Below, piece by piece: positions 1-20,922 of a DNA stretch of 20,922 nt. This DNA comes from a virus. Location of the stretch: IMG/VR virus record IMGVR_UViG_3300025674_004792, positions 1 to 20,922 of that record. The stretch is one strand, 5' to 3'. Made by a program: the position numbers and the translations under genes. Position 1 is the stretch's first letter. The number at the start of each line of letters is the position of its first letter. A model generated the notes under the pieces. That model did not search any database, was not told the DNA's origin, and was given only the letters and a program-made list of their open reading frames with translations.

Positions 1-1214
1 TTCTGTAATTGTTGTAGTTCTTCTGCTACTCCAAGTTGTGTAGCTTGTACGTATTCTGTAGCAGTTTGTGTTTCTCTACCAAATCTTCTTTGTGCTGCTT
101 GTATTCCACCTAATGATAATGATGCTTGACCAAAACCTTTTCTTGCACCTTCTTGTGTTAATCCTTGCTGTACTAATGACTGTGCTACTAATTTATTTAC
201 ACCAAATCCTGCAACTTCTGCTTCACCGAGAACTTGTGATGCTCTTATCTGACCTTCTAATATATCTTTACCAACTTTTGGAGAAACAAACATAGCAAAT
301 ATTGCTTCATTTGGTAAATCAATACCATAATTATCTAAGTATGCTTGTTTTACTTGTGGAATGTTATTAACAATACCTTGATAACCTGCTTCTAATCTCT
401 GTTTAAACTCTAGTGGTGCTACATCTCCACTAAGTGCATTAACAATATCATCTTGAAACTCATTAGGATTTAAGTTATAATCACGCAAACTAGCTTTCAT
501 ATTATCCACAGCAGCAACATACTCTTGTTCTGTCATCCTAAGTGAACCATCTTTTCTCTTTATTCCAGGATAAATCTCATTCATTATTGGGTCTGCTCTC
601 ATTTCAGCTAAAGCTAAACGTTCATTTCCTGATTCTGCATATTTATTTAAAAACAATCTAATTAATCTATCATCTAAATAAGGATATAAACCTTTAGCCT
701 GTTCAAATGTAGATGGTCCTGTTTGTGCAACTTCTGCTACTTGTGCTGATGCTGCATAATTACCAAGTAATGTAGATAAAGTATCTGTATCAATACCACC
801 ACCTGAACCTTCAGGTTTGCTAGTTAAATTAAATCCTGCATTTCTATATGCTTTTTCTTCATCTGCATCTTTTGCAGTTATTGCAATACCATCAGAGTTC
901 CATAAAACTATAGGATAACCATCATCTACTACAGTTTCATCTACTACTGGTTCATCTACTACAGTTTCATCTACTACTGGTTCATCTACTACTGGTTTTG
1001 TTATTACTGGTTCTTTATCACTACCATAAACTAAACCTTGTGTATTTGCTATTGCACCAAATTTTTTAGATTGTGCTGCTGCTTCAGCTATTGAACGTGA
1101 TTTATTTATTTTTGCTTCTGCTGCAGCTCTTGTCTTAGGTCCAATAATTCCATCAGGTGTTACACCTAATTCTCTTTGTAATGCTTTAATCTCTTCCGTT
1201 GTCATATTTTCCAT
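1..1214 (-). CDS. Partial virion-associated protein with N-terminal peptidoglycan-binding domain
   Basis: The frame starts at ATG 1214 and stays open to the left window edge, giving 404 codons with no stop, so the C-terminus is missing. Residues about 5-36 match the PG_binding_1 fold: a leucine/glutamine-rich helix, then TPDGIIGPKT. This domain usually anchors cell-wall-active enzymes to peptidoglycan. Residues about 74-98 are an acidic linker made of VVDEP/VVDET repeats. The rest is predicted mostly helical and glutamine/alanine-rich, and no catalytic domain is visible in the part present. The start lies 2 bp after the upstream stop at 1217, with TAGTAGG about 7 nt before the ATG. A second in-frame ATG at 1205 has GGAAAAT before it and is a possible alternative. 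By position it is probably an internal, tail or ejection protein. The domain call is good; the role is inferred. Confidence 0.85.
   Translation of the reverse strand, partial: MENMTTEEIKALQRELGVTPDGIIGPKTRAAAEAKINKSRSIAEAAAQSKKFGAIANTQGLVYGSDKEPVITKPVVDEPVVDETVVDEPVVDETVVDDGYPIVLWNSDGIAITAKDADEEKAYRNAGFNLTSKPEGSGGGIDTDTLSTLLGNYAASAQVAEVAQTGPSTFEQAKGLYPYLDDRLIRLFLNKYAESGNERLALAEMRADPIMNEIYPGIKRKDGSLRMTEQEYVAAVDNMKASLRDYNLNPNEFQDDIVNALSGDVAPLEFKQRLEAGYQGIVNNIPQVKQAYLDNYGIDLPNEAIFAMFVSPKVGKDILEGQIRASQVLGEAEVAGFGVNKLVAQSLVQQGLTQEGARKGFGQASLSLGGIQAAQRRFGRETQTATEYVQATQLGVAEELQQLQ
931..990 (-). repeat. Two perfect 30-bp tandem repeats encoding a VVDEP/VVDET linker
   Basis: Bases 931-960 and 961-990 are identical. 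Each 30-bp unit is two near-identical 15-bp halves differing only in their first few bases, and a further partial half-unit follows from 991. In the minus-strand frame they encode pentapeptides VVDEP and VVDET in alternation. The repeat lies between the peptidoglycan-binding domain and the helical body, so it probably acts as a flexible acidic spacer. Unit number could vary by slippage or recombination. Confidence 0.9.
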
Positions 1215-1216
1215 AA

Positions 1217-2434
1217 TTAACCTACTAAACTTTGTCCTGTAAATACACCTGATACATCTTGTTTGAACACATCTGTCATAGCACCAAGTACTGTGTCTTG
1301 ATATGTTGGGTCATTCTCATATTGTTTTCTTATTTCTGCAGCAAACAATGTCATATCTCCACCAACCTTTTGTGATATAATGTCCACATTTTTCTTATCT
1401 TGATTAGATAAAGCAGACTTACCAACAATAGTTTGGAATGTTCTATATAGTGGTGCAGACCATAAGGCGTGTTGACTACCTTTATAACCAGGAAACATTG
1501 TATCGTGTGCAGATTGTAATTGATTTTTAATAATATCTAAATTAGTTGTTACACCTTCTCCTAATGAAGCATCTGCTCTTAACATAGCTGCATACTTATC
1601 AATAACACCATTATTTTCAAATGCCATAGCTGTATCTACACCTAAGTATTGTGTAACTAATTCTTTTGCATCTGCAACTCCACTATGAGTAGGATTAATT
1701 CTTTGTATAAAACCTGTATAGTTTTGGTTCATAACACCTTGACCACCTGCCATAGCTAATTTGTATGGGTCAATAAGATAGGATATTGTCATAGCTGCTT
1801 CACCAGTAGTCATATTTCCTTGTGCAATATCTCCTGCTAATTGTCTAACTAAATCATCTACACCTTCACCTGATATTCCCATTTGTGCAATTTGTAGTTT
1901 AAGTGCTGTGTAATTATCTTTAACTAACTTAGCTGCTTTAGTTGGATTAGTATATATTAATTTAATCCACTCTCTTTGTTCAGGCGTACTATCTTTAAAC
2001 CAAGTTAATTGGTCTAAGTATGGCGATATATCTTCACCAGTTATTGCACCATAAGCAAACAACTGTTGTACTTCATCATCTAAATACCATCTTTTACCAA
2101 ATATTTCTGCTTTCTTTTGCAAATCGTTTTCCACATTTTCCAATATCCAATCAACATCTGTCTTTGGATTTTTAGGGTCTATGACTTTTAAGTCTGATAA
2201 GTTGAACATTGGAAAAAATGCATAACCATACTTGTCTGCAAATGTATCTATTGTATATTCTGTTGCTTGATTAAACGCACCTTCAGCAAAACTTTCAGGT
2301 AAATCAACATCAACTACTAATGGCATAACATTACCACTTGTAGCCGTGTACATATACACAGCATAATATTCACCATCTACAAGTATTAATTCATCAGGTG
2401 TTTGTAGTAAGCTACCTTCTTTAAATATTGCCAT
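1217..2434 (-). CDS. Unknown phage structural protein, mostly helical (405 aa)
   Basis: No catalytic motif is recognised. The N-terminus (about residues 1-35) is short and predicted beta-rich. The remainder is predicted alpha-helical with many Gln, Asp and Ala residues, and no signal peptide or membrane segment is seen. A C-terminal stretch around MFPGYKGSQHALWSAPLYRT loosely recalls repeated helical proteins in actinobacterial phage structural modules, but this is memory only. Its ATG shares one base with the TAA of the upstream 1549-aa gene (TAATG), with AGGGAT upstream as a modest Shine-Dalgarno site, so coupled translation is likely. It is followed within 2 bp by the peptidoglycan-binding gene. 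It is most likely a virion protein of the ejection or tail set. A capsid role cannot be excluded but is not supported. Confidence 0.75.
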   Translation of the reverse strand: MAIFKEGSLLQTPDELILVDGEYYAVYMYTATSGNVMPLVVDVDLPESFAEGAFNQATEYTIDTFADKYGYAFFPMFNLSDLKVIDPKNPKTDVDWILENVENDLQKKAEIFGKRWYLDDEVQQLFAYGAITGEDISPYLDQLTWFKDSTPEQREWIKLIYTNPTKAAKLVKDNYTALKLQIAQMGISGEGVDDLVRQLAGDIAQGNMTTGEAAMTISYLIDPYKLAMAGGQGVMNQNYTGFIQRINPTHSGVADAKELVTQYLGVDTAMAFENNGVIDKYAAMLRADASLGEGVTTNLDIIKNQLQSAHDTMFPGYKGSQHALWSAPLYRTFQTIVGKSALSNQDKKNVDIISQKVGGDMTLFAAEIRKQYENDPTYQDTVLGAMTDVFKQDVSGVFTGQSLVG

Positions 2435-5400
2435 TATCTATCCCTATTATAAACTGTATTTGCTAGTTGTAATGTTCTATTCATAATTACATTAGCTTCA
2501 GGTCTATTGTTATAGTACCCATTTAATACTTTATCATAATCAATATTGTCTTGCATTAGTTGTACTTTGTAATCATCAGGTACTTGTGCTTTCCATAAAT
2601 CTTCTCGTATATCTAATTCTTCGCTGTTATCTATTAGTGCATCTTCAAACACTTCACCTTGTGATTGTCTAAATAAATTATCTAAAGTAAATGTCCATAT
2701 TTTATCTGATAGTATTTCGGATGGTGACCTTTCTCCTGCTTCTTGTAATATCTCTAGCAGTTCAGGACCATAATCTTGCCAAAAAGTTTCTTCGACTATT
2801 TGTTTTTCCCAATCTTCACCATTAGCTAATATCTCATTTCTTTTAGCAAACACGTTAGCTAGTTCAGGAATACCTTGCATAGCTGCAATTATTAAGTTAG
2901 CTACTTCATATGCTGCCCATACTGTAGCTGCTGTAGCTGCTACACCACCAAGTGATACTGCACCTGCTGCTAATGCAGCTTTTTGTGCTTGTGCAAATGC
3001 TTTAGAAATTAATGTTTCACCTATGTCTAATGTTTTCCAAGCGTAACCTAATGTCTTACCTGTCTTAGTTTGTGAAAATGATTTAGCCATTTTACGTAAA
3101 GTTTGTTTATCAGGATTAAGTCCTACTGGTGGTCTATCAGGATTAAATGGTACACCATAAAAATCTGTTCCTTCTATTCCATTTAGATTTTGACCTAAAG
3201 AATAACCTGCGTGTATTCTTGGTAAATTATCATCATTAACTAATTGTGTTGTTACACCATTTTTAATAAAGTTTTGGTCACTTACAACTACATCTATTGT
3301 TGAATATGTAGGTGTATCATTTGGAAATATATTTTGTATGTTACTTTCTAAAACACCATTATATATATCCTTATTTGGAACTAAAAATTCTACATTTATC
3401 ATAGATATTGGATTATTAGTTTTTATAGTTTGACCATCTATTTCAATTCCAAATTCAGATAATCTTTGTAATGTAAACCCTGAACCTAGTTCAATATTTT
3501 GACCTTTTCTTTTAGCTATTGAGAAATATCTTGGCAAATCCTGTGGGTCACTAGAAGGTAATTTAAAATATATTTGTACTGCACCATCTATTCTGTTATC
3601 TACTAAATCAAATAACTTTGTTAATTTATTATTTATTTCATCAAGTTCAGGAATATGTGTAAATAATGCATCTAATTCAACAATACTATATATTTGTTGT
3701 GGAGAAACTTGATTAGGTGTTACTCTACCTGTAGGTGTTTGGTTTTGTATAGTAACTAAATCTTCTTGCATCCATCTATATCTTTCAGCTAACTCATCTG
3801 GAGATACTAATTGTGATTTATATTGAAGTATATCTCCTTCTCTTGAACCTAAAGTAATTCGTGTATTTTCAAAATCTCCATCTGTTATACCTATAGCTCT
3901 AGCTATTCTTCCAACAGGATGTACTCTATCCACCATAGATGCAGTTCTATCTGTTATTCCTGGTTCAATATCTATGCCTAATTCGTTCATAACTTGTGTA
4001 AATGCTGTATTAACTATGTTTACTTGTGAATCTCCAAAAGCAATATTAGATGAAATAGAGTTCATTATATTACCATCACTATCGGTATTGGTAATAACTT
4101 CTATGGTTGTATAATTTTTACTTAATTGTATACGACCATCAGCTAATGTTTCTTGATATATAACTGATGCTTCATAATACTGTCTTGGAAATTGCTCATT
4201 ACCAAATTTTTCTGTTCCTACAAATTCTATATCTGAAGATAACAATATATTTTCATCTGCTCTATTTCCTAATTGTTTAATCCAATAATTCATATTTCTA
4301 GTAAATAAATGTTTTGCTCTTTCACTTAGTACATTTCTTCCACTAAAATATCCGTGCTGAACACCAGTAAATACATCAGCAATTCTTTCTGCATCTACTT
4401 CAAATACATCTGATAATAATGTTAGTTGTGCATCTCCATTACTGTAATGTCCTGAAGCACCTGTAAATGTTGATTGTGTAGAATCATAAGGATAATATGC
4501 ACCGGCTTCAGGTTCTAATTGCAAACCAGTTCTTAAATTTTGATATGTATCTTCTAAATTTATTGTTTGTATATATTGGCTTAATCTTTGAGAACCAAAA
4601 GCATCAGGAGTATCAGGAGTAGAACTTGTAATTGCTGTTGGTGTTTGTGAACCATCTGTTATCCAATCATTTATAACTTGATTAGTATCAATTTCAGGTC
4701 CATCTTCAGTTATATCTATTAATAACTCTTGTTCTAAATCTGTTCTTGTTTTAATTCCTAATTCAATTCTTTTACTTTCAGGAATATTCATTAACAATAA
4801 GTTTTCAAAAATATTCCATTGTGAAGCACCAGTTCCCCATAAATCTTTTAATGGTCCAGTAGCAATTAAATCATTACCTGTGTGATGTAAATCCCAACCT
4901 ATTCCACCTAATTCAAATTTAGATATACCAAGTTTTTGTAATGTTTCTTCAGGCACATCCATAACATTGACACCTGTCATTAATTCAAAACTTTCTGTTT
5001 TAAAAATTAAAGCCATTAAATCTTTAGGAGTTATTAAATCTTCTAGTTCTTTTATCAAACGACTAATATCTCCTGTTTTTGTTACAAAAGTTGTATTACC
5101 TTTTAACAAATGGTCTAATATTAATCCTACATTCCAAGGTTGACCACCAAATCCTAATTGGAACATAGCATCTATAACTTTTCTTTTAGGAAATATACTT
5201 AAATCTGCATTTGCTAATCCTATCATTTGCAAATGTCTTGGTGATTTATTTATATCATTAAATATTTTTTTAGTTGCTGTTCCTTGAATATCGTATGGTT
5301 CACCCCATAAAACTTCATCATATTCTAAATCAATAGAAAATTCTTTATTACTTAATTTTGTTTTCCAACCACTATCTATTTCATTATTTGCATTAGGGTA

Positions 5401-7083
5401 TCTAACCATACTGCTTCTTATTACATCAGCATTTTTTTGTTCTCCTGCTGTCATTGTCATAGCATCTAATTTATTAAATAAAAATCCTCCAAGTTGATAG
5501 GTATTAGCAACATAAGAATTAATTGGTGAGTTAAACAATACTACACCATCTGCATCAGCAACAGCTAACAATCCTCTAAACCATTCAACTGCAACTCTTA
5601 CACCTCTGCTTTGTAAATTTTTTACTTTTTTTGCATTGTCTATTAAAGGATTTGGATAATAACCAATGGTTGCATCAGGAGTAAAATCTAAAAAGTTTGT
5701 TTGAATACTAGCTTCAGTAACTCTGAGTCCTCTACGTGCAGTACCTACATCATTTTCAAATCTTCTATGACCTGGTTGGTCTGATTCTGCAATACTTACA
5801 ATATGCTGATTACCATTTACATCAGTATGAACTAAACCTAAAAAATAACTAGGTTTTTTAATTAGTTCCTGGTATCTTGTTCCATCAGCTTTTTCTAATA
5901 TTTTTTTAAAAAATTCACCAATACCTTTTTTATTTACTACCATTTTATGTAAAGTATTTTGATTATATCTACTACTACCCGCATAACCACGTACACCTAT
6001 TATCCTCCAACTAAATTTATCTCCTGCTCTATCTAAAGCAGCTTGTATAAATGGATTTCTGTTTATTCTGTTTAACAAAATTCCAAACCTCGAATGAGTT
6101 GCTTGACTTGTAGTTATGAGTGGTCCATTAGAACCATCACTATTAATTAAATTTTGAAATTTTACATTATTATCTTTTAAAATATCATACCTTGTGTCTA
6201 AATAATCAGCTAACTTTTTTTGTACTGCATCATTATCTTCAGGAAATATTATTCTTGTTGTTTTATACGCTTCAGGAGTATTATCTACTGCTTTTTTATT
6301 TATATCGTGTGTATTAAATGGTTGTAATTCATTTAATTCATCAGGACCTAATTCTGATATATATGCACTATTTGCAGCTACAGGTAACTCTAATCTAACT
6401 GACCATCCTGTTTCTTTTCCGTGTTCTATTAATATTTCTGCTAATTCATTAAAGTCAACTAACCTATCCCCTCTTATAAATTCTTGTAAAGTAAAACTAG
6501 GATAAAAAACAGAATCATTATTAACATATAAAAAATTTTCATCTATTGCTTTTAATAATCTTTGTTTAGCTTCATCAAGAGAGTTATATTCACTCGGATA
6601 ATTTTGATATAACTTTTCTGCTACACCATTTAATTCTTCAGGTAGATTAGCAGGGTCTAATGCTTGTGCTGCATCAACTGCTTGTGTAGTTTCTGTTGTT
6701 CTAGCTCTAGGTGTTTCAGGTTCAGTTGGTGTTTCAGGTAAATCAACATTACTTAAACTATCATCATTGTACAAAGATACAAGTAACTCATCACCTATAT
6801 TTCTTTCTATTTGTTCTTCAAAATCAACCACAAACGAATTAGGTAATTGTCCACCTGCATCCATTACTGCATTATAAATACTTTCTGATACTCTTCTAGT
6901 TACCACTCTTGGAAAATTATTAGAATCATATTCTGTACCTACTTGTACAGCAGTATCTTTAATTAAACTTTTTACTCTATTTTGCTCTCTATTAGATAGA
7001 TTACTTACATTTATTTGTGTTTCTCTACCTACATAGTCTATTGCTAAACGATATACTTCATTTACAAATTCATTAAGTGTCAT
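2434..7083 (-). CDS. Giant phage protein of unknown function (1549 aa) with C-terminal hydrophobic segment
   Basis: An uninterrupted 1549-codon frame. The N-terminal ~110 residues are predicted helical and are followed by a Pro/Thr/Glu-rich linker at about 113-135, as often separates domains. The long middle is mixed alpha/beta without a recognised active site. Residues about 1365-1405 form an Ala/Val/Gly-rich hydrophobic stretch (AAGAVSLGGVAATAATVW lies within it) long enough for one or two membrane passes. The C-terminus is charged and helical. The ATG overlaps the TGA of the 56-aa gene (ATGA), and no good Shine-Dalgarno site precedes it, which suggests re-initiation after that gene. Length and position fit an internal virion protein ejected into the host envelope, or a large multi-domain 'polyvalent' protein. 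Both are inferences. Confidence 0.8.
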   Translation of the reverse strand: MTLNEFVNEVYRLAIDYVGRETQINVSNLSNREQNRVKSLIKDTAVQVGTEYDSNNFPRVVTRRVSESIYNAVMDAGGQLPNSFVVDFEEQIERNIGDELLVSLYNDDSLSNVDLPETPTEPETPRARTTETTQAVDAAQALDPANLPEELNGVAEKLYQNYPSEYNSLDEAKQRLLKAIDENFLYVNNDSVFYPSFTLQEFIRGDRLVDFNELAEILIEHGKETGWSVRLELPVAANSAYISELGPDELNELQPFNTHDINKKAVDNTPEAYKTTRIIFPEDNDAVQKKLADYLDTRYDILKDNNVKFQNLINSDGSNGPLITTSQATHSRFGILLNRINRNPFIQAALDRAGDKFSWRIIGVRGYAGSSRYNQNTLHKMVVNKKGIGEFFKKILEKADGTRYQELIKKPSYFLGLVHTDVNGNQHIVSIAESDQPGHRRFENDVGTARRGLRVTEASIQTNFLDFTPDATIGYYPNPLIDNAKKVKNLQSRGVRVAVEWFRGLLAVADADGVVLFNSPINSYVANTYQLGGFLFNKLDAMTMTAGEQKNADVIRSSMVRYPNANNEIDSGWKTKLSNKEFSIDLEYDEVLWGEPYDIQGTATKKIFNDINKSPRHLQMIGLANADLSIFPKRKVIDAMFQLGFGGQPWNVGLILDHLLKGNTTFVTKTGDISRLIKELEDLITPKDLMALIFKTESFELMTGVNVMDVPEETLQKLGISKFELGGIGWDLHHTGNDLIATGPLKDLWGTGASQWNIFENLLLMNIPESKRIELGIKTRTDLEQELLIDITEDGPEIDTNQVINDWITDGSQTPTAITSSTPDTPDAFGSQRLSQYIQTINLEDTYQNLRTGLQLEPEAGAYYPYDSTQSTFTGASGHYSNGDAQLTLLSDVFEVDAERIADVFTGVQHGYFSGRNVLSERAKHLFTRNMNYWIKQLGNRADENILLSSDIEFVGTEKFGNEQFPRQYYEASVIYQETLADGRIQLSKNYTTIEVITNTDSDGNIMNSISSNIAFGDSQVNIVNTAFTQVMNELGIDIEPGITDRTASMVDRVHPVGRIARAIGITDGDFENTRITLGSREGDILQYKSQLVSPDELAERYRWMQEDLVTIQNQTPTGRVTPNQVSPQQIYSIVELDALFTHIPELDEINNKLTKLFDLVDNRIDGAVQIYFKLPSSDPQDLPRYFSIAKRKGQNIELGSGFTLQRLSEFGIEIDGQTIKTNNPISMINVEFLVPNKDIYNGVLESNIQNIFPNDTPTYSTIDVVVSDQNFIKNGVTTQLVNDDNLPRIHAGYSLGQNLNGIEGTDFYGVPFNPDRPPVGLNPDKQTLRKMAKSFSQTKTGKTLGYAWKTLDIGETLISKAFAQAQKAALAAGAVSLGGVAATAATVWAAYEVANLIIAAMQGIPELANVFAKRNEILANGEDWEKQIVEETFWQDYGPELLEILQEAGERSPSEILSDKIWTFTLDNLFRQSQGEVFEDALIDNSEELDIREDLWKAQVPDDYKVQLMQDNIDYDKVLNGYYNNRPEANVIMNRTLQLANTVYNRDR

Positions 7084-7250
7084 AGCAGAGTAGTTAAATC
7101 AATAAATAAATCTGTTTCGCTTATAAAGTCAGGGTTTAATTTTTCTGATTCTATATCAATTCCAAAAGAACTCCATTTAACTTTTCCATCTTCTAAATAA
7201 ACTTCTAGTTCAGGATTTTCTTTTAAATATTCATTTAACTTATCTGCCAC
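7080..7250 (-). CDS. Small acidic protein of unknown function (56 aa, GTG start)
   Basis: This frame fills the gap between two long genes. It starts at GTG 7250, inside the end of the lysozyme-fold gene in another frame, and stops at a TGA that overlaps the ATG of the 1549-aa gene by 4 bp. GGAG at 7260-7263 is 9 nt upstream, a reasonable ribosome-binding site. The product begins VADKLNEYLKENPELEVYLE and is rich in Asp, Glu and Leu, with no cysteine pairs or membrane segment. The exact tiling between neighbours, the use of the ribosome-binding site, and the lack of a separate Shine-Dalgarno site for the next gene all support it as real. It may couple translation of the 1549-aa protein. Function is unknown. 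Confidence 0.75.
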   Translation of the reverse strand: MADKLNEYLKENPELEVYLEDGKVKWSSFGIDIESEKLNPDFISETDLFIDLTTLL

Positions 7251-13000: not shown

Positions 13001-16000
13001 ATCAGGTAGTATTTGTAAAAATTCTTCTCTTAAATATATTTTTGGTTGATGAGCTTTTATAGCAATAGACATAGCATTTTTAATATATTTTTCTGCTTCT
13101 GTTAATGAAGTAACATCTTCTATTTTTCCAAGTTGTACTGCAACATCTAGTATTACTGTGTTATCTACTATTTCTATATTTATTCCGTGTTGTGCTTTTT
13201 CTAATTGCAACCTTATTGATGGATTAGTTGCGTAATTACTTACAGCATTTGCCAACTCTTCTTTAGTTGTAAATTCAATTATTTGTTTATATTTTTTATT
13301 TGGAATAACAGAAACTGCAGCTAAATCTATTTTACTTAAATTTGAAAAAGGTAATATATTTGGTGGGCTATCTGTCATAAAAGTACTTTTTAAAAAGTTT
13401 CTACCATCTTTAACTTTTTGTTTACCTAATGTTTTAAGTTCACCAATAATTTCATCAAAAGCAAATTCAGTTACATTCTTACCATCAATAGCGTATTGTA
13501 AAAATGAATCTCCTACTTGTCCTGATGCATTTGTGTTAAGTCTTAACACTTTCATTATTTGCTGTATGTCATCATACTTCAAAGTTTGTAATGCTTTTTG
13601 CATATCTACATTACCTAACAATTCAGCAACGCTATCTATATCATCTGCTGCAATAGCAGTAGAATATAATTGTTCTCCTAAACTATCTACAAGCTGTATA
13701 TTCATAGGACTATTCTTAAACATTCCATTTGTTTTAAGCGAAGCTAATAACAATGGATGTGAAAATACATTAGGACCACCATACATAGCAATACGTACTG
13801 CTTCTTCAGGTGGAACTCTTAAACTTAATGCAGGTCTTAACATCCAAGATGGTTTTAATGCACGTTGCATTATGTAATCAGAATATAAATAATCTAACCA
13901 ACCAGTAGGTGCTAATGTAGTTTTACCTGAACGTAAATTCTTTTTTAATCCTCTTGTAGGTATCTTTGCATTTTCTAATATTTTTTCTGTTAGCTTATAA
14001 TCTTTTTGACCCCAAGTAGTAGATATTAATTTTTTAAGACCACTTCTATTTGGTCCAACCATTCTTCTAAAAGAACTTAATGCTCTTCCTAATTCTTGGT
14101 AATCAATTAATGGAGTAAAGTTATCAGCAAATTGACCTAAAGAAAAAGCAGTAGGAACAGCTATCTCTGTAGCTTCCAATATGTTTCCTGCATCATCAAC
14201 TCTATCAGGTCTATATTTATATTTTGTTCCAGGAAATGCTAATGGTTGCCCTTCGCTGTCATACAGATATTTTCTTTTTTCTGCAATTTCATTATTAACA
14301 AAATCCATAACACCTTTGACTAAATCTTCTTCATCTGCTAAATCAGGATTATCTTTAATAACTTGATTTTTAATTTTATTATTTAATGTTCTAACAACTT
14401 TAACTATGTCATCTTGATTTCTAGCTTCAAGCAATTCACGAATGTAATAATCTCTAGTTTGTTGAGTTTCACCTAATGTAATTAATATTCCATCTATGTT
14501 TTCTATTGTTTCACCAATGTAATTAACTGAAGCAAATCTACTTGGTGCTAAATCAAATAATCTTTTTACTCTTTGTGGTAATGCATTTTTTAACGAACCA
14601 CCTAAACCAATAACACCTTTGAATGGGTCATCACTCATTTTTCCAAGTAACGCACCTACAGTATTTCTAAGTGGTGCAATATCTACAGATTGACCTGCAA
14701 ATTTTTTAGCTAACTCGTTTGCCATATCTGCAACAACAGATTGTCGCATTGGTAATTTAGTAATTGGTGTTTCTATAGCAGCTTGTGCTATTTCTTGACC
14801 AACAAAAGAACCTGAATAAGGTGCAATCATTAAATCAGATAAATCTCCGTGTTTTAGTAAAGACATAACAATTTCTTTCATAGAGTTTTTATCTTTAACT
14901 TGTGCTAATAGTTTTAATACTTTAGGGTCAACTTTACTTAATGAAGGTATATCTTTAAGTCTTGATATTGAATCATTTTGTGTTAACGCATCTACAAACT
15001 TTTCTCCCCATTTAGAATCCATAATTTGTTCTGCAGTTTTACCAAAAGTTAATCTTCTAGCTTCTTTACCTTTTTTACCTGGAACAAATGTTTTTAATGC
15101 TCTAGTCATAAAAGCAGCATCATCAACATATTGTGCAACTTCTGTAGCAGATATTATTTGCCTACCTGCAGTTTTAGCTGCACCACCATAACCAAGTAAT
15201 AAGTTTATTGGGTCTGCACCTAATCTAAATGCACCATCAATAATGGTAGAAGCTAACGCATAAGCTATATCTCCTTCTTGCGAAAATTGTGCAGCTACAA
15301 CTCTACCTGGAGATATTGGTATTCTTTCTCCTGTTTTAGTTGTATAAGTAAATTGATATTCATCTCTTTCAAATTCTTCAGTTATTGGTTTACCATATAC
15401 TTTTTGTGCTTCTTGATATGCTTCTGTAGGTGATTTACCTAATTTAATCTGTTTACTGTAAACATCAGTATCTTCTAATGCGATTGAATTAGGTAAAATA
15501 CCCACACCTAAGTTAAGTGGTTTACCTGCATTTACTTCATTGATAGCTCTACGAAATTCGTTTTCACCATATGCTTCTTTTGCTTCATTATATTTATTAT
15601 TAAATTCATTACCTAAAGTTGATTTACGTATTGATTCAGTTAATTGTTCTCCTGGAATTAATCCTGCCAACGTATTACCAAGTACTGCTGTAGCAACATT
15701 TGAATCAGTAGCTTGTGCAGCAACTACAGAAGATTTAAAATTTCTTGATATATTTTGAAAAGCACTATCCATAGCTAAAAAAGATAACTGTGTTGCTCTT
15801 TTTAAAGGATTAACTTGTGTATTAACTTTTACACGTTGTTTTTTTTCCATAGCACGTTGTTGTGTTTGTGCAATCTTTAAAGTATCTTCATCATCTGCTT
15901 TTAATCCCATAAGTGGTAAATAAGCAATTAATCTTTTATCCATACTTGGATAGGTATATGCCATATCTCTCATAGCTTGTGCTAAATCAGGAGTAATAGC

Positions 16001-16099
16001 TCTTTCAAATTCAGATACTTCTTGAATGTTCTTATTTGTTTTTTCGGCTAATCCTTCTTTAACCTGTGAAGGCATATAGAAATTAGGTCTAAAATCCAT
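10043..16099 (-). CDS. Giant putative internal virion protein (2018 aa)
   Basis: The largest gene, one unbroken frame of over 6 kb. It is mostly predicted helical and amphipathic. Several moderately hydrophobic stretches are seen, for example near residues 126-150 and 1547-1577 (FGMTAIPGAFGFAPLQTTLL). A basic/aromatic segment near residues 746-775 (LKPSWMLRPALSLRVPPEEA) stands out. The C-terminal ~350 residues are charged, with coiled-coil tendency. No nuclease, polymerase or protease signature is recognised, and T7/N4-type RNA polymerase motifs were looked for without success. Length and position recall very large internal or ejection proteins of podoviruses, so injection with the genome is the leading inference; a tape-measure-like role is an alternative. 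It starts 1 bp after the stop of the preceding gene, with ATAGG upstream, and its TGA overlaps the next ATG. Confidence 0.8.
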   Translation of the reverse strand: MDFRPNFYMPSQVKEGLAEKTNKNIQEVSEFERAITPDLAQAMRDMAYTYPSMDKRLIAYLPLMGLKADDEDTLKIAQTQQRAMEKKQRVKVNTQVNPLKRATQLSFLAMDSAFQNISRNFKSSVVAAQATDSNVATAVLGNTLAGLIPGEQLTESIRKSTLGNEFNNKYNEAKEAYGENEFRRAINEVNAGKPLNLGVGILPNSIALEDTDVYSKQIKLGKSPTEAYQEAQKVYGKPITEEFERDEYQFTYTTKTGERIPISPGRVVAAQFSQEGDIAYALASTIIDGAFRLGADPINLLLGYGGAAKTAGRQIISATEVAQYVDDAAFMTRALKTFVPGKKGKEARRLTFGKTAEQIMDSKWGEKFVDALTQNDSISRLKDIPSLSKVDPKVLKLLAQVKDKNSMKEIVMSLLKHGDLSDLMIAPYSGSFVGQEIAQAAIETPITKLPMRQSVVADMANELAKKFAGQSVDIAPLRNTVGALLGKMSDDPFKGVIGLGGSLKNALPQRVKRLFDLAPSRFASVNYIGETIENIDGILITLGETQQTRDYYIRELLEARNQDDIVKVVRTLNNKIKNQVIKDNPDLADEEDLVKGVMDFVNNEIAEKRKYLYDSEGQPLAFPGTKYKYRPDRVDDAGNILEATEIAVPTAFSLGQFADNFTPLIDYQELGRALSSFRRMVGPNRSGLKKLISTTWGQKDYKLTEKILENAKIPTRGLKKNLRSGKTTLAPTGWLDYLYSDYIMQRALKPSWMLRPALSLRVPPEEAVRIAMYGGPNVFSHPLLLASLKTNGMFKNSPMNIQLVDSLGEQLYSTAIAADDIDSVAELLGNVDMQKALQTLKYDDIQQIMKVLRLNTNASGQVGDSFLQYAIDGKNVTEFAFDEIIGELKTLGKQKVKDGRNFLKSTFMTDSPPNILPFSNLSKIDLAAVSVIPNKKYKQIIEFTTKEELANAVSNYATNPSIRLQLEKAQHGINIEIVDNTVILDVAVQLGKIEDVTSLTEAEKYIKNAMSIAIKAHQPKIYLREEFLQILPDNHPIKKISTIRYNRGAYDVIEVPIYRQPDARIDNINIDSPVIQEVMEFLFDSNFQTAKKIINKKGGYAQAAPSGSFFNTDKYYVQTMAEQSLTNALKPRGRQLNAAEDFYIMVDKYKMVGDTPVINPQWWRGWIHDILNKAGDPLFVVVARDGANKALKFFTETTQGKKYINELIRRSDDSEVRAILKDKNQLMKYLKSAEYEIARLQGNESRKILRNGQEITEVQAREIISGPSGELVFPDYEADLSLGAAKVREFIANGGFVDGEDYLELAQKYSVLSAKTEKYFGKFYDKIKQVFDEDIVKLDLGPRKQAFNNNPNLTSTGQLATSALNKWDEALGSAYSLLLTKPSDWLNRDPMFRWSFYTLAEDLLPFMTEDVKKEFIVGAKTWVGDSDLFKNLLKKSKLPAEENTIITLEQAETLLKYKAMEQVRNLLYASSDRHVLSDVMSSYVPFPEIWQEVLKTWGNLLIENPQKFNRTRIGIDRGKEAKPWDTDNAFFTSDPVTGELLFNYVDVMNVMTFGMTAIPGAFGFAPLQTTLLGEDLTDEGVRVKPYGFLEGLNLISANGFSPGFGPIVTFPFKILTKIATAPKFLNDFVLGNFEQPGGGVNFIDELPSWFKGIMKAVPLSQEATEEINASYSRTVMDIFTLYYYAGKWTPEDEESIKVAMQEAEKAAAIHWLVRGSAQAAYPTAIQPRYEVKDKNGAWWTIQVLGQKYQQLLEANQFDYYVTTQQFINKYGLNPIPLRQSSTAKQGRFPVKKESYAFWVQNENKELMDRKPYTAIHLFPDRVDDEFSLPAFMAGGETLEPNAYSRAVQQSLLQFELENFKEELKEDKTLTASARQERYSAEKSRLQEEYGVIAYGSLGDAVLMADKYQIILELRDWENEPLLRESPAFEPLQKFFKEYDRAIDVVLNGGKFRGITIPKGGIPGKTAATLSGTSGNIDLIREELDAYARELAIQYEDTEWISIYLGSFWKELDNRRYLK

Positions 16100-16100
16100 A

Positions 16101-16511
16101 TTAACCTATATCTATATCTGCTTCTAATAGCTCATCCCATATTGGGTCAGGTAATACTCTTTTCGCTGCTTTAAAAATATTAGCAACTGTATTAGTTGCC
16201 ATTGGTGTAGGACCATTATCTCCTGCACCTAATGGAATACCTGATGTAATAGGTTCAAAAGGTTTATTAGTAGGTGCTGCTAAATTAATTGGCGATTTAG
16301 GAACTATTGGTCTAGTAGGTGCAACTCGTGGTCCACCACCTTGCATTGGACTAATAGCACCTGCTTGTTCTTCTAGCATTGTTGTCTGCCCTGTTGGGTC
16401 GCCTTCTTTTCTAGGTGGTGCAACTATATCTGCAAAAGCACCTGATTGTGTTAGGTCGGTAGCTTCCTCCAACGCTTTGCTTCTTCTTCCTCTATTATAT
16501 TTATTTGCCAT
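16101..16511 (-). CDS. Small Pro/Gly-rich protein of unknown function (about 136 aa)
   Basis: The N-terminus is strongly basic (MANKYNRGRRSK). It is followed by a low-complexity region rich in Pro, Gly and Thr that is probably disordered, then a short C-terminal helix ending in acidic residues (WDELLEADIDIG). I chose ATG 16511 rather than the in-frame ATG 16520. AGGAG (16521-16525) directly abuts the upstream ATG but lies 9 nt before the downstream one, a workable ribosome-binding distance. The start overlaps the end of the 69-aa gene by 11 bp. A basic head and disordered body would suit a head-completion, scaffold-like or DNA-contacting accessory protein, but nothing identifies it. Confidence 0.75.
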   Translation of the reverse strand: MANKYNRGRRSKALEEATDLTQSGAFADIVAPPRKEGDPTGQTTMLEEQAGAISPMQGGGPRVAPTRPIVPKSPINLAAPTNKPFEPITSGIPLGAGDNGPTPMATNTVANIFKAAKRVLPDPIWDELLEADIDIG

Positions 16512-16710
16512 ATAAGTCATCTCCTAGTTCAGGGTTGTATTCGTATTCAAATGTTAAGTTAATAAAAAAATGAGGATGTGGTGTAGGTAATGTTATAAAT
16601 TGGCTCATAACTACACTATTTAATTTATCTGTACCTGTATATGCTTCATCTGACCAATCTTCTTGATTAATCATATTGTAAAACTTAGCGATTACTTCTT
16701 GTTCATCCAA
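16501..16710 (-). CDS. Small protein of unknown function (69 aa, TTG start)
   Basis: The frame begins at TTG 16710, reads MDEQEVIAKFYNMINQEDW and ends at TAA 16501-16503. AAGGAG at 16717-16722 lies 6 nt upstream of the TTG, the best Shine-Dalgarno match in the neighbourhood, which supports TTG as the true start. The start overlaps the portal gene's stop by 8 bp. The product has an acidic N-terminal helix and a beta-like centre with aromatic residues (HPHFFINLTFEYEYNP). No cysteines or membrane segment are seen. Between portal and giant protein, a head-tail connector or adaptor is conceivable, but no family is recognised. Confidence 0.75.
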   Translation of the reverse strand: MDEQEVIAKFYNMINQEDWSDEAYTGTDKLNSVVMSQFITLPTPHPHFFINLTFEYEYNPELGDDLYGK

Positions 16711-18493
16711 GAGGAACTCCTTGTGGTGGTGGTCCTGCTTGACCTAAAGCACCAAGTACTTGTTCAATTCCTGGTAATCCACCTCCAGGACCTGCAGGTA
16801 TTTGTGGTCCACCTTGACCCAACAACGCTAATTCTTCAGGTGTAGGTTCTTCACCTTCTGCTGTATAAAATTTATCTAAAATCTCTGACATTTTTTGTGG
16901 ATTTTTTCTTATCTCTATAGCAGACATTAATGCCTTTTGGTCGCCTTGTGATGCTTGTGCCATAAGAGTTTCAAACAAAACTGTTTCTGCTCTTTCTGCG
17001 TGAATACGTTGTTGTATTCTAGTTATGTTATCTAATCCATCCATATTCTCTTGTAGAGTTTGTGTATCTATAATTCCTTGTTGCTTTAATTGCAAACCAG
17101 TAATAATTTTTTGTGCTTCATCAAATCCTGCCATAACACCATAAACTCTTCTAGTTTCATAAACTTCTGATATATCAGTTTCAGGTGTATAGCTTTCTTT
17201 AAAAGAAGTTCCTTTATGCCTACCTGCAATAGGTTTACGCACATTACCAAACATTAACTCATCATATTCAAGTCGTTTAGCATCCATCTCTTCTAAAGCA
17301 TCTTTTAATACTGTTTGATATTCTCTAACGTGTAGTGATGCAGATTGTCCTAGTTCTTCTAGTCCTCTACCAGTAACAAAAGAGTTTGGAGATTGACCAT
17401 CATCAGATACAGGATATGCAGCACCAAGTCGCAAGTGTCGCTCTAGTCTATCTACTTGTTGAAATAGTTGGTATGGTAGATTGTTGACAGGCTTTGACAC
17501 TTGTGAACCTGGTGTTAAATAGTTAACAGCAAATCTGCCTTTTCTATATTTACCTGATTCAATTTCTCCTACAATATTTGTTTCTGTAAATACTGCATCT
17601 TCCATAGCAATAGTTCCAAGAATATTAATCTTTGCCATATTTGCCATAAGACCAGTTATGTGTTGGAACTGTGATTGCATTTGGTCAAACGCATATCGTT
17701 TAGCAACAATAAACGCAGGACCTGACCTTAATATGTTAGGAATAAAATCTATAATTTTTTTATTTTCAGGAAGATAAATATACGTTCCTTCTTTGTCATA
17801 ATACTGAACTAATACTTTTCCGTGTCCTGTAGAGTTAGCCCAACTTCCTGCTCTATCTGTACTATCAAGTAAAGCAGAGTATGGATTTTGAAAACCTTGT
17901 TGTCCTTTTTCTGCTTGTTGATAAATATATGCTTTAGCTTCAGGATATTGTTCAGCTAATATTCTATGTGGAACTCTACGTATAATTGCTAATTCATCAG
18001 GTTGTTGGTCATTACCAAATGTTCCTGGATAACAAGTAAACGAATCTTGTAGTTCTGCATATGGATATGGATTACCATCTCTATCTCTTCTATGACCTAA
18101 TGTCCAAACAATAAATCCATAACCAGGTAACCATCTTGCTGCTTGTGGTAATTGTTTATCTAGCTTTTGAAATTTATCATAAGCAGTAACAATTCTCTCT
18201 AGCTTCTCTGATTTTTTCTTTGCTCTTTCACTATCCTTTTCGTTGATTATATCAACTTTTAAATCAGGACTTCTACCCAGTTTTTGTGCAAATCTTTCTA
18301 GTGCAGTTAAAAATAAGTTAGGTGCAGGTAATTCGTGATATTCTACATTAATTGTATTACCTAGCAACGCTTTAACTGCTGCTTCACCACCATTCATAAT
18401 ATCCCTAATTCTACTTCTATCAATAAGTGATTCTTGATTGATAACTCTTAGGTAATCTATTCTGTCATATAATTTATCGCTGTTAAGTGGCAT
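16703..18493 (-). CDS. Probable portal protein (596 aa)
   Basis: Identified mainly by place and form. It follows the terminase large subunit directly (ATG right after the TAG), has a typical portal length, and is predicted as a soluble mixed fold with long helices in the second half. Portals form the 12-subunit ring at one capsid vertex through which DNA is packaged and ejected and to which the terminase docks. The N-terminal ~60 residues are charged and helical, the central part (about 110-260) is beta-rich and aromatic, and residues about 330-480 hold long charged helices. The C-terminal ~50 residues are Gly/Pro-rich and probably flexible (GPGGGLPGIEQVLGALGQAG). GGAGATAG precedes the ATG. 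No other protein in the window is a better portal candidate, but no diagnostic motif exists to confirm it. Confidence 0.8.
   Translation of the reverse strand: MPLNSDKLYDRIDYLRVINQESLIDRSRIRDIMNGGEAAVKALLGNTINVEYHELPAPNLFLTALERFAQKLGRSPDLKVDIINEKDSERAKKKSEKLERIVTAYDKFQKLDKQLPQAARWLPGYGFIVWTLGHRRDRDGNPYPYAELQDSFTCYPGTFGNDQQPDELAIIRRVPHRILAEQYPEAKAYIYQQAEKGQQGFQNPYSALLDSTDRAGSWANSTGHGKVLVQYYDKEGTYIYLPENKKIIDFIPNILRSGPAFIVAKRYAFDQMQSQFQHITGLMANMAKINILGTIAMEDAVFTETNIVGEIESGKYRKGRFAVNYLTPGSQVSKPVNNLPYQLFQQVDRLERHLRLGAAYPVSDDGQSPNSFVTGRGLEELGQSASLHVREYQTVLKDALEEMDAKRLEYDELMFGNVRKPIAGRHKGTSFKESYTPETDISEVYETRRVYGVMAGFDEAQKIITGLQLKQQGIIDTQTLQENMDGLDNITRIQQRIHAERAETVLFETLMAQASQGDQKALMSAIEIRKNPQKMSEILDKFYTAEGEEPTPEELALLGQGGPQIPAGPGGGLPGIEQVLGALGQAGPPPQGVPLG
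16717..16722 (-). promoter_or_regulatory. Ribosome-binding site deciding a TTG start
   Basis: The minus strand reads AAGGAG, 6 nt before TTG 16710 and inside the 3' end of the portal gene. The only nearby ATG, out of frame in GGATGA, gives just four sense codons before a stop. The spacing and strength identify TTG as the initiation codon of the 69-aa gene. Confidence 0.75.
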
Positions 18494-20416
18494 CTATCTC
18501 CAATTATCTATATCCATCATACTAGATTCGTACCCTGAAAAGCTAGGATTATAATCATATCCTAACTCTGCAAAGCGTTCTTTTTGCATACGCCTAATTG
18601 CTCTCATTGGAAACCAACTAGCCATAACTATGTCTGTCTTTGTACCCACACTCTTGCTTTTATTCTTAGCAGAACTAAAGTACACTAACTGACTTGTATA
18701 TAAGTTTACCTTCTCTTGTGCTTCAAAGCTAAGATATGGCAAAGAAATATTTTGTTCTTGAAACATAGGTCGCATAGCAGTAACACCATAAATTGGGTCA
18801 AATTTATTCTTATGTGTTTCGTGTCCTTCTAAAAATATTCCGTGCTTAGATGCAAAATCTCTAATACTTTTATCTTGTCGTATTGCTTTTTGAAATCCGT
18901 TTTCTTCAATAACCCAATGAGATACATTATATTTTAACCACCACTCTTTCATAATCTCTAGTGCTTGTGGAATACCACCACCTAAATTGTTATTCATATC
19001 TACCATATGTAATTTGTTTGTTACTGAATCATATGCCCATAAGAACGCAGCTTGATAACCTGTAGATGCAGGGTCTAATCCTGCTATAAGTCTTGTACCT
19101 TGTGGTATGTGTCCTATGTTTCTTTTTTGGTCACGACACGCTTCTATTTCTTCTCTATCAAACAAAGCTAAACCATCAGGCATAGCAACATTCAAATAAA
19201 CCATTTCATAAATTGCTCTACCACCTGTAGTTTCTGCAGCTCTTTTTCTATCCATTAACCATTTGTAAGTTCTTTTACCTGCCCATAACATACAATCAAT
19301 ATGTTCTTCTTCATTCCAATCAGGTAAATTACAAGCAGTATCGTGTGCTTCTTCTACAGTTGCAACCCAACTTTGATTATCAAGTAGGTGTGAATATAAA
19401 TCATCATAATGTTGTCTTGAACCAATAACTACCATAGCAGTATGTTCTTCTTTTCTTGATGACAATGTTGTTGTCCACCAACTTCTAGTATTTTCTCTTG
19501 ATGATGGTTGCATTGTAGAGTTATGGTCCTCAATGTCATCTGCAATAATAATATCGCAATCACGAGAAAGTATCTTACCACCTCTACCAATACCAACCAT
19601 AGTTGGAGATTTAATACCAGTTACAGTTCTAGTACCTACAGTAAAACCATTTTGTGACCAAGACTTACCTGTACGAGATGTAGGTTTAAATTTTGCACCA
19701 GGTCCACATATTTCTTCAATTAATAATTCATTACTTTCTAGTTGGTCAAGTACAGAACCTACAGCATTCTTAGCAATCTCTTCGTTACCACCTACCCATA
19801 AAATACGAATGTTAGGATTTTTACAAATAAGCCATACTGCAAAATGAATTAACAAATCTGTTTTTCCGTGTCGTGGTGGTGATAATATTAATTGCTGTCC
19901 ACCATTGTCTATAGCATTCATAATTTGATTTATCCACTTCTTGTGAAATTCAGGTGTTTCGTATGCTATACCTTGTTCTGTTTGAAAATATCTTTGTCTA
20001 AAATCTTCAAAGTCAGCTAATGTTTTTTCTGCAACTTGTGGTAGTTTCCAGTTATCTTGTTCTTTCTTTGTTTTTAAATCTTCAATGTATGCAGAAAATG
20101 CCATAGATACTGCACCAACTGTTGTGCCTAATATCTCTGCAACTTCTTGCATTGTTATTTTTTCTGTGTATATATCTGCAGCTAAACCTGATTCAATTAT
20201 GTCGTTATAAACCTGTCCTCTACGTGCTTGTACATTTGTTTTTCTACTAGGTATTTCAAGTACATCATCTTGTTGTGACCATTCCTTACCTGCTTTTCTA
20301 GCACGTTTCTTTTGCATATTAATTCTGTTAGCACAACGTGTAGAACAATATTTTTTTGCTCTAGGTGGTAATGGTCTATGACAACCTGCTGCGTAACATA
20401 ATTTTTTATTTGCCAT
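18494..20416 (-). CDS. terL: Terminase large subunit with N-terminal zinc-binding and HTH regions
   Basis: The DNA-packaging ATPase/nuclease. Numbering here is from a GTG at 20425; starting at ATG 20416, as I prefer, subtract 3. A cysteine cluster C-x4-C-x11-C-x3-C (about 10-31) suggests a zinc-binding knuckle, and a basic stretch follows. Residues about 90-115 (TMQEVAEILGTTVGAVSMAF) look like a helix-turn-helix of the kind found in small terminase subunits. The ATPase has Walker A PPRHGKT (183-189), Walker B DIIIADD (291-297) and a coupling motif around GSRQHYDD (335-342). The RNase-H-like nuclease has acidic residues in GLDPAS (D451), VIEEN (E507/E508) and KTD (D598). ATG is favoured over GTG by codon preference, and no strong Shine-Dalgarno site separates them. 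The gene overlaps the end of the zinc-ribbon gene. No separate small terminase gene is seen. Confidence 0.95.
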   Translation of the reverse strand: MANKKLCYAAGCHRPLPPRAKKYCSTRCANRINMQKKRARKAGKEWSQQDDVLEIPSRKTNVQARRGQVYNDIIESGLAADIYTEKITMQEVAEILGTTVGAVSMAFSAYIEDLKTKKEQDNWKLPQVAEKTLADFEDFRQRYFQTEQGIAYETPEFHKKWINQIMNAIDNGGQQLILSPPRHGKTDLLIHFAVWLICKNPNIRILWVGGNEEIAKNAVGSVLDQLESNELLIEEICGPGAKFKPTSRTGKSWSQNGFTVGTRTVTGIKSPTMVGIGRGGKILSRDCDIIIADDIEDHNSTMQPSSRENTRSWWTTTLSSRKEEHTAMVVIGSRQHYDDLYSHLLDNQSWVATVEEAHDTACNLPDWNEEEHIDCMLWAGKRTYKWLMDRKRAAETTGGRAIYEMVYLNVAMPDGLALFDREEIEACRDQKRNIGHIPQGTRLIAGLDPASTGYQAAFLWAYDSVTNKLHMVDMNNNLGGGIPQALEIMKEWWLKYNVSHWVIEENGFQKAIRQDKSIRDFASKHGIFLEGHETHKNKFDPIYGVTAMRPMFQEQNISLPYLSFEAQEKVNLYTSQLVYFSSAKNKSKSVGTKTDIVMASWFPMRAIRRMQKERFAELGYDYNPSFSGYESSMMDIDNWR

Positions 20417-20510
20417 ATTTAACACATTCTTTATTTCTACACACTACGTGACCTTTTTCAATTTTTAATTTAACTCCACACATAGGACAAGGTATATCGT
20501 ATGTACTCAA
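20406..20510 (-). CDS. Tiny zinc-ribbon protein (34 aa, TTG start)
   Basis: The frame reads (M)STYDIPCPMCG, then CRNKEC and ends KYGK. Two cysteine pairs, CPMC and C-x4-C, are spaced as in a zinc ribbon. Without an in-frame ATG before the first pair, TTG 20510 is the likely start; it follows the TAA of the upstream 33-aa gene directly and in the same frame. The 3' end overlaps the terminase start. Zinc ribbons of this size are common accessory proteins in phage genomes and may bind nucleic acid or protein. Initiation could be by coupling, since only a weak purine-rich AAAGAAAAA precedes it. A start by stop-codon readthrough from the upstream gene is possible but unsupported. Precise function is unknown. 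Confidence 0.65.
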   Translation of the reverse strand: MSTYDIPCPMCGVKLKIEKGHVVCRNKECVKYGK

Positions 20511-20612
20511 TTATTTTTTCTTTGTTTTTGCATAATATGCTTGTACTTGTTTGAGGGTCATCTTTTTACCACTAGGTGAATAATAATATTTACCTCGTTT
20601 AGTAAAAGGCAT
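20511..20612 (-). CDS. Small lysine/tyrosine-rich protein (33 aa)
   Basis: ATG 20612 to TAA 20511-20513. The product starts MPFTKRGKYYYSPSGKKM and ends in a run of lysines, so it is strongly basic, with several tyrosines and no cysteine. It starts 2 bp after the stop of the 24-aa gene, with AAGAAG about 9 nt upstream as a weak ribosome-binding site. The composition suggests DNA or RNA contact, and the place at the head of the packaging operon is consistent with that, but no family is certain. Confidence 0.65.
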   Translation of the reverse strand: MPFTKRGKYYYSPSGKKMTLKQVQAYYAKTKKK

Positions 20613-20614
20613 AA

Positions 20615-20689
20615 TTACATCTTCTTATATTTTTTAGTTTTCTTAGCGTAAGATTTTTTCTTACCTTTTTTGTCTATAACCATACTCAT
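20615..20689 (-). CDS. Tiny lysine-rich peptide (24 aa)
   Basis: ATG 20689 to TAA 20615-20617. About half of the residues are lysine (DKKGKKKSYAKKTKKYKKM makes up most of it). There is no clear Shine-Dalgarno site, and a second in-frame ATG is at 20683. The same frame also extends upstream to an ATG at 20743, but that would run through the terminator hairpin, so the short form is preferred. The tight 2-bp link to the next small gene and the similar composition support a real gene pair. Function is unknown; nucleic-acid binding is a guess. Confidence 0.5.
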   Translation of the reverse strand: MSMVIDKKGKKKSYAKKTKKYKKM

Positions 20690-20702
20690 TACTATAACAC
20701 AA

Positions 20703-20722
20703 AACCCCACCGAAGTGGGGTT
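20703..20722 (-). terminator. Rho-independent terminator-like hairpin with UUCG loop
   Basis: A perfect 8-bp stem, AACCCCAC pairing with GTGGGGTT, encloses TTCG on the minus strand, the very stable C(UUCG)G tetraloop. On the minus strand the stem's last two T's and two further T's follow the GC-rich stem; the T-tract is short (TTTTGTG). On the plus strand no T-tract follows. It would terminate or attenuate transcription entering from the right, only 13 bp before the first small gene. Confidence 0.75.
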
Positions 20723-20824
20723 CTGCACGTACAGTCTGTCCATTTACTGTTTTATGAAAGAATATGAAATATCAAATCAACTAGCCATCAGTTTCTTAAC
20801 ACACAATTGTCATTATTTTTTCTG

Positions 20825-20921
20825 ATGAAAAGCCTTTTCTTTTCATATCTAATCGTGTACCTCTACACGATACTTTTGGACTTTCCAAAAGTATGTTTAT
20901 ACTAGCTTCCCCCCCAAGCTA
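20825..20921. other. Array of four consecutive perfect hairpins
   Basis: Four perfect inverted repeats follow one another: 20825-20832/20839-20846 (8 bp, 6-nt loop), 20852-20859/20864-20871 (8 bp, 4-nt loop), 20870-20880/20884-20894 (11 bp, 3-nt loop) and 20903-20908/20916-20921 (6 bp, 7-nt loop). The second and third share two bases. Every loop is pure pyrimidine on the plus strand (CCTTTT, CCTC, CTT, CCCCCCC) and so pure purine on the minus strand. None is followed by a T-tract on either strand, so simple termination is unlikely. The array lies upstream of the packaging operon, with about 100 bp of featureless AT-rich sequence (20723-20824) before the terminator. Possible roles are a structured leader or small RNA, a packaging or replication signal, or hairpin promoters. 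Confidence 0.7.
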
Positions 20922-20922
20922 A

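What the first reader, a model, noticed from the sequence alone, without database searches (positions are those of the whole stretch)
1..20922. Complete absence of CATG as well, while GTAC and CTAG persist
Several hundred CAT trinucleotides were read on the plus strand and none is followed by G. The expected count is about the same as for GATC because the base content is identical. GTAC (for example 47-50) and CTAG, also of the same composition, are present, so this is not a general effect of low GC or of palindromes. Together with missing GATC it suggests avoidance of two distinct four-base restriction or methylation sites, a fingerprint that could link this phage to a host.
Basis: seen in the sequence. 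Interest (0 to 1): 0.72.

Follow-up and report, generated by a model that had tools for sequence, protein, structure and literature searches.

The report
Phage purged of CATG restriction sites
This stretch of an uncultured marine phage, probably infecting small ocean actinobacteria, has lost every CATG (and GATC) tetramer, almost certainly to escape host restriction enzymes; comparing its relatives shows that each such site is either wholly purged or freely present from lineage to lineage, so the set of missing sites looks like a record of which host defences each phage lineage has met.

Summary
Confirmed: CATG 0 (expected 58 by Markov, 26 by synonymous-codon shuffling), GATC 0 (51 by either); GTAC, CTAG, TGCA and AGCT are normal. 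The window is the structural half of an uncultured phage distantly syntenic with Streptomyces Beephvirinae; a relative lies in an Actinomycetota MAG. The two losses have different histories. GATC is eliminated clade-wide (6 seen, 3,486 expected in 30 long relatives). CATG elimination is specific to the window lineage: CATGs of relatives are kept at 0 of 105 aligned positions here, against 33-73% in other relatives; 17 probably ancestral sites are all gone, most by one silent change. CATG is also absent or nearly so in at least three other lineages. Ten CATGs in a near-identical sister contig lie only in its early module, mostly in segments shared with CATG-bearing relatives, suggesting imports. 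Ten of ten clade contigs carrying a phage MT-A70 methylase have GATC; none of 30 long records without it does beyond stray copies. Type II site avoidance is supported, for more than two sites; no cognate CATG enzyme was found in the candidate host family.

The parts
1..20922 (.). CATG-free and GATC-free stretch of the phage genome (whole window)
   Evidence: 0 CATG and 0 GATC; codon-shuffle expectation 26 and 51
3..1214 (-). 404-aa protein, open at the window edge, with N-terminal peptidoglycan-binding domain; sits next to the capsid module in relatives
   Evidence: PF01471 E 7.8e-05, phrog_8424 E 1e-19
1217..2434 (-). 405-aa conserved virion-module protein of unknown function
   Evidence: ORF; 70-84% identical in the nearest relatives
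2434..7083 (-). 1549-aa fast-evolving protein of the virion module, function unknown
   Evidence: best segments 33-46% identical in full-length relatives whose terminase is over 90% identical
7240..8619 (-). 459-aa protein with weak lysozyme-like (SLT_3) match
   Evidence: PF18896 E 2.2e-04, below the curated cut-off
8619..10046 (-). 475-aa virion-module protein, unknown function
10043..16099 (-). 2018-aa giant protein; its place resembles the 1646-aa protein of Streptomyces phage Manuel (position only)
   Evidence: no sequence match in annotated phages
16101..16520 (-). 139-aa protein between portal and giant protein
   Evidence: phrog_8200 E 5e-06
16703..18493 (-). portal protein, 596 aa
   Evidence: tblastn to Streptomyces phage portal proteins, E 1e-20, about 24% identity over 86%
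18494..20425 (-). terminase large subunit, 643 aa
   Evidence: phrog_38 E 1.4e-63; Streptomyces phage terminases E about 1e-23

Best explanation
The window is part of a double-stranded DNA phage of marine actinobacteria whose lineage has been selected to contain no CATG, after its whole clade had already lost GATC and several other type II restriction sites. The likely force is host type II restriction: DNA without sites cannot be cut. Avoidance is all-or-none per site and per lineage, presumably because lineages meet hosts with different enzymes. When pressure is lifted, by a phage-borne methylase (MT-A70, apparently for GATC) or by a change of host, sites return. Shown here: the absence, its lineage specificity, selection at ancestral sites, the all-or-none states and the MT-A70/GATC association. 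Inferred: that the agent is a restriction enzyme, the host family, and that MT-A70 methylates GATC. Not found: the CATG enzyme.
For: 0 of 105 CATG positions of relatives retained in the window against 33-73% in other relatives and 29-52% for nine control words; 17 probably ancestral sites all lost, 11 of the 15 scored by one synonymous change, with mixed replacement words; codon-shuffle expectation 26, seen 0; GATC 6/3486 in 30 long relatives; independent CATG-free lineages; all MT-A70 carriers of the clade have GATC, six of them no CATG, and GATC shows the largest rise of all tested tetramer classes in carriers; CATGs of the sister contig confined to its early module, mostly in segments shared with CATG-bearing relatives; known precedent for elimination of type II sites in dsDNA phages (PMC6286503).
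Against: No CATG-specific nuclease or methylase identified in the candidate host family; host genomes are not CATG-depleted by the codon null; host assignment rests on protein similarity and one composition-binned MAG contig; some eliminated words (ACGG/CCGT, CGTC/GACG, CCGC/GCGG in the clade) are not palindromes; the retained CATGs of the G001 early module need the extra assumption of recent import.
Confidence: 0.85

Rival explanations
1. Base composition, codon usage or mutational bias happens to leave no CATG.
For: CATG is mildly low (0.73 of codon expectation) in relatives too.
Against: Codon-shuffle expectation in the window is 26 (sd 3.8) with 0 seen; control words are retained normally; relatives with the same genes and similar composition have CATG; elimination is all-or-none.
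Confidence: 0.01
2. CATG decayed by deamination of methylated cytosine (C to T), not by selection.
For: CATG contains a cytosine on both strands that a host methylase could modify; C-to-T decay would give TATG or CATA.
Against: At 17 probably ancestral sites the window has CGTG 6, CAAG 4, CATA 3, TATG 1 and others, so only 4 fit single deamination.
Confidence: 0.02
3. The sites are avoided because of another DNA-level system that reads the same words: methyl-directed mismatch repair, modification-dependent (type IV) restriction, phosphorothioation-linked restriction, or a host regulator.
For: GATC is also the target of MutH and of modification-dependent enzymes (own knowledge); PMC6286503 notes strong GATC avoidance in phages of hosts with GATC type IIM enzymes.
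Against: Would not explain CATG, GGCC and GCGC switching independently; type IV sites are rarely eliminated in that survey; a phage methylase going with return of GATC points to protection by methylation rather than attack on it.
Confidence: 0.1
4. Library or assembly artefact: DNA cut with CATG and GATC enzymes before sequencing favours site-free contigs.
For: NlaIII and DpnII are used in some library types (own knowledge).
Against: Aligned sites are replaced by substitutions, not gaps; the same species was recovered in four further records; one of them, G001, has CATG in another module.
Confidence: 0.005

Closest known systems
Elimination of orthodox type II restriction sites in dsDNA phages (Rusinov et al. 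2018, PMC6286503)
   Same: Palindromic sites reduced to under 0.1 of expectation with expected counts above 15, in a dsDNA phage; weaker in phages that modify their own DNA.
   Different: Host enzyme not known here; several sites eliminated at once; states compared among close relatives, which dates the losses and shows module breakpoints; purging of GATC goes with absence of a phage MT-A70 gene.
Streptomyces phages of Beephvirinae (Manuelvirus, e.g. Manuel MG518519)
   Same: Homologous terminase and portal; similar order terminase, portal, small genes, giant protein, further virion genes.
   Different: About 24% protein identity, 60% G+C, tRNA array, no avoidance of GATC or CATG (1.04 and 1.10 of codon expectation); capsid of the window's clade resembles Mycobacterium and Propionibacterium phages instead.
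Phage MT-A70 family DNA methyltransferases (PF05063, phrog_359)
   Same: 177-aa protein of G051 and relatives has the DPPW motif and matches the family at E 2e-32.
   Different: Not in the window or G001; target GATC is inferred from the association, not measured; unrelated phages with MT-A70 relatives have mixed GATC levels.

Membership tests
Elimination of orthodox type II restriction sites | Site is a short palindrome | tested here: met
   CATG and GATC; other eliminated words include 6-bp palindromes
Elimination of orthodox type II restriction sites | Observed/expected below 0.1 with expected at least 15 | tested here: met
   CATG 0/26 and GATC 0/51 by the codon null; 0/58 and 0/51 by Markov
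Elimination of orthodox type II restriction sites | Deficit is selective rather than compositional | tested here: met
   0 of 105 retained against 29-52% for control words; mostly synonymous single changes
Elimination of orthodox type II restriction sites | Host encodes the cognate enzyme | tested here: inconclusive
   Host family inferred only; D12 methylase in 7/42 genomes, no DpnII or ICEA hit, ICEA control found nothing
Elimination of orthodox type II restriction sites | Non-temperate dsDNA phage | tested here: inconclusive
   Tailed dsDNA phage by terminase and portal; I saw no integrase among the frames read, but the window is a fragment
Beephvirinae (Streptomyces podoviruses) | Homologous terminase and portal in the same order | tested here: met
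Beephvirinae (Streptomyces podoviruses) | Close protein similarity and shared capsid gene | tested here: not met
   About 24% identity; capsid of the clade matches Mycobacterium and Propionibacterium phages

The most novel reading that the evidence does not exclude
In this uncultured phage clade each restriction site is a switch, either purged to zero across the genome or freely present. A small phage MT-A70 methylase substitutes for purging of one word, GATC, and module swaps between lineages leave visible breakpoints where the missing-site pattern changes (G001, G061). The pattern is then a readable barcode of host enzyme exposure and of recent recombination in viruses that have never been cultured.
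Probability: 0.6. Interest if true: 0.72.

Novelty: new member of a known kind. Interest (0 to 1): 0.55.

Why it matters
Restriction-site avoidance is known, mostly as a statistical deficit in isolated phages with known hosts. Here it is complete, dissociable site by site, and ordered in time by close relatives: GATC loss old, CATG loss recent. The MT-A70/GATC exchange predicts a methylase's target from sequence alone, which is directly testable. If missing-site patterns track host enzyme repertoires, they give a handle on strain-level host range of uncultured marine viruses and on recent recombination between them.

Tried and rejected
Terminase profile against 84,980 bacterial and archaeal genomes: no relative; the capsid profile then gave one. 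Same depletion in host genomes: under a Markov null GATC and CATG looked like the consistently depleted palindromes of the host family, but the codon null removes this for CATG (1.02) and leaves a weak GATC deficit of 0.82, so it is not used as evidence. A phage gene separating CATG-bearing from CATG-free records: no convincing candidate. D12 and N6_N4 methylases as cause of GATC return: none in the 49 viral records; MT-A70 was then found by a motif search in G051. G052 and G053 have GATC but no MT-A70; both lack the Mre11-like early gene, so they probably do not cover that module. DpnII-type and ICEA-type nucleases in the host family: none. A paper on the candidate host was not held. Rfam and tRNA scans of the window: nothing.

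Full report
Observation. The window has no CATG and no GATC. Expected numbers are 58 and 51 under a maximal-order Markov model, and 26 (sd 3.8) and 51 when synonymous codons are shuffled inside each gene. The codon null also shows CGTC+GACG 0/27, CAATTG 0/12, AAGCTT 0/7.9, TCTAGA 0/7.2, CAGCTG 0/7.0 and GAATTC 0/6.6 in the window: CATG and GATC are two of several missing words.

What the window is. The long open frames lie on the minus strand: terminase, portal, a 2018-aa protein, further virion-module proteins and a peptidoglycan-binding protein. Terminase and portal match Streptomyces Beephvirinae at about 24% identity, in a similar order. The clade's capsid protein matches phages of Mycobacterium, Propionibacterium and Bifidobacterium, and its Mre11-like protein mostly those of Mycobacterium, Propionibacterium and Streptomyces. 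One capsid relative (86%) lies on a 58-kb contig binned into an Actinomycetota MAG, RS345. The 42 genomes of that MAG's family are 0.6-1.1 Mb, and stretches sampled from 20 of them are mostly 31-36% G+C. This fits Candidatus Actinomarinales as described in PMC7771536; that name is my inference, since the tool names no genomes.

History of the two losses. Among 30 terminase relatives GATC is 0 in all but one, which has a single copy; CATG is depleted but present in most, and 0 in L002, L003 and L004, which are 99.9% identical to the window. In an alignment of the window with six relatives, CATG of relatives is retained in the window at 0 of 105 positions; the other relatives retain 33-73%; nine control words are retained at 29-52% in the window. 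Seventeen sites shared by at least two relative lineages are all lost. Of the 15 that could be scored inside a gene, 11 changed by one synonymous substitution. The replacement words are spread (CGTG 6, CAAG 4, CATA 3 and four others), which argues against deamination.

Mosaic. Contig G001 matches the window at 99.88% over 19.9 kb and carries 10 CATGs, all in the 8.9 kb beyond the window's end. Nine lie where some relative is 92-99% identical locally, one where it is 88%; seven of the ten are shared with a relative at the same site. A recent import of early-module segments from CATG-tolerant relatives is the simplest reading, not a proof. G061 looks similar: 13 CATGs in its first 8 kb and none in the next 22 kb, while its relative G058 has none in 40 kb.

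All-or-none states. Among 80 capsid relatives CATG is zero or nearly so in L109-L111 with L119 (one clade, support 98/95), in L120 with L126, and in L130, besides the window's own lineage. GATC is present in G051, G052 and G053, which fall in separate places of the tree. GGCC and GCGC switch likewise: G058 lacks CATG but has 52 GGCC; G063 lacks CATG but has 27 GCGC. The deep forks of the capsid tree are weak, so I count lineages, not events.

The methylase. G051 encodes a 177-aa MT-A70 protein (PF05063 E 2e-32; phrog_359, DNA methyltransferase). Its GATC-free sister G054 does not, nor do the other viral records searched. A scan for that protein found ten further contigs of this clade, each with at least five clade genes; all contain GATC, and six have no CATG. 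Pooling ten carriers (111 kb; one near-copy left out) against 30 long non-carriers (1.22 Mb), GATC is 267/331 against 6/3486, the largest rise among the tetramer classes tested. Related contigs are not independent, so I give no p-value. G052 and G053 have GATC but no MT-A70; both lack the early Mre11-like gene and probably do not cover the locus. Specificity for GATC is inferred, not measured; unrelated phages with MT-A70 relatives show mixed GATC levels.

Mechanism. The best account is selection by host type II restriction enzymes, with purging as the default answer and self-methylation as the alternative for GATC. It fits the survey in PMC6286503, where near-complete elimination is largely confined to orthodox type II sites and avoidance is weaker in coliphages with modified DNA. 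The link to a specific host enzyme is open. In the candidate family a D12 methylase occurs in 7 of 42 genomes, one closest to DpnM among solved structures and next to a DUF6997 protein; C5 methylases in 9; an N6_N4 methylase match in 37; one genome has an MvaI/BcnI-type nuclease. No DpnII hit was found, and none for ICEA, whose control also found nothing. Host genomes show no CATG deficit by the codon null and only a weak GATC one.

Verdict. It is a new member of a known kind of phenomenon with an unusually clean comparative record. The idea that CATG plus GATC form one host fingerprint is too simple: they are separate marks with separate histories.

Noticed in passing
clade-wide (G002-G006, G008); CGTC/GACG also window 1-20922: Non-palindromic words are eliminated on both strands: ACGG/CCGT 0 of 235 expected, CGTC/GACG 3 of 352, CCGC/GCGG 1 of 91 by the codon null. 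Possible type IIS or type III sites; unexplained.
   Followed up: partly
L254:2216-2746 (G051), L274-L279, L334, L335, L340, L344: MT-A70 methylase gene in relatives; its carriers have GATC, other long records do not.
   Followed up: yes
G009:C30 (L246-L248, L243): 58-kb phage contig in the Actinomycetota MAG repeats itself at a period of about 43.9 kb, so the phage genome is probably about 43.9 kb; it encodes an N6_N4-type methylase.
   Followed up: partly
G009-G050 (e.g. L227:1330-2163): A roughly 280-aa N6_N4-type methylase without an obvious nuclease neighbour occurs in most genomes of the host family; specificity unknown.
   Followed up: no
L137 (G035): DpnM-like adenine methylase next to a DUF6996/DUF6997 protein, a candidate restriction pair.
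   Followed up: partly
G058, G060, G061, G083: GGCC, absent in most of the clade, is over-represented in these records.
   Followed up: partly
window 2434-7083: The 1549-aa protein diverges far faster than its neighbours (best segments 33-46% identical in full-length relatives whose terminase is over 90%) yet keeps its place.
   Followed up: no
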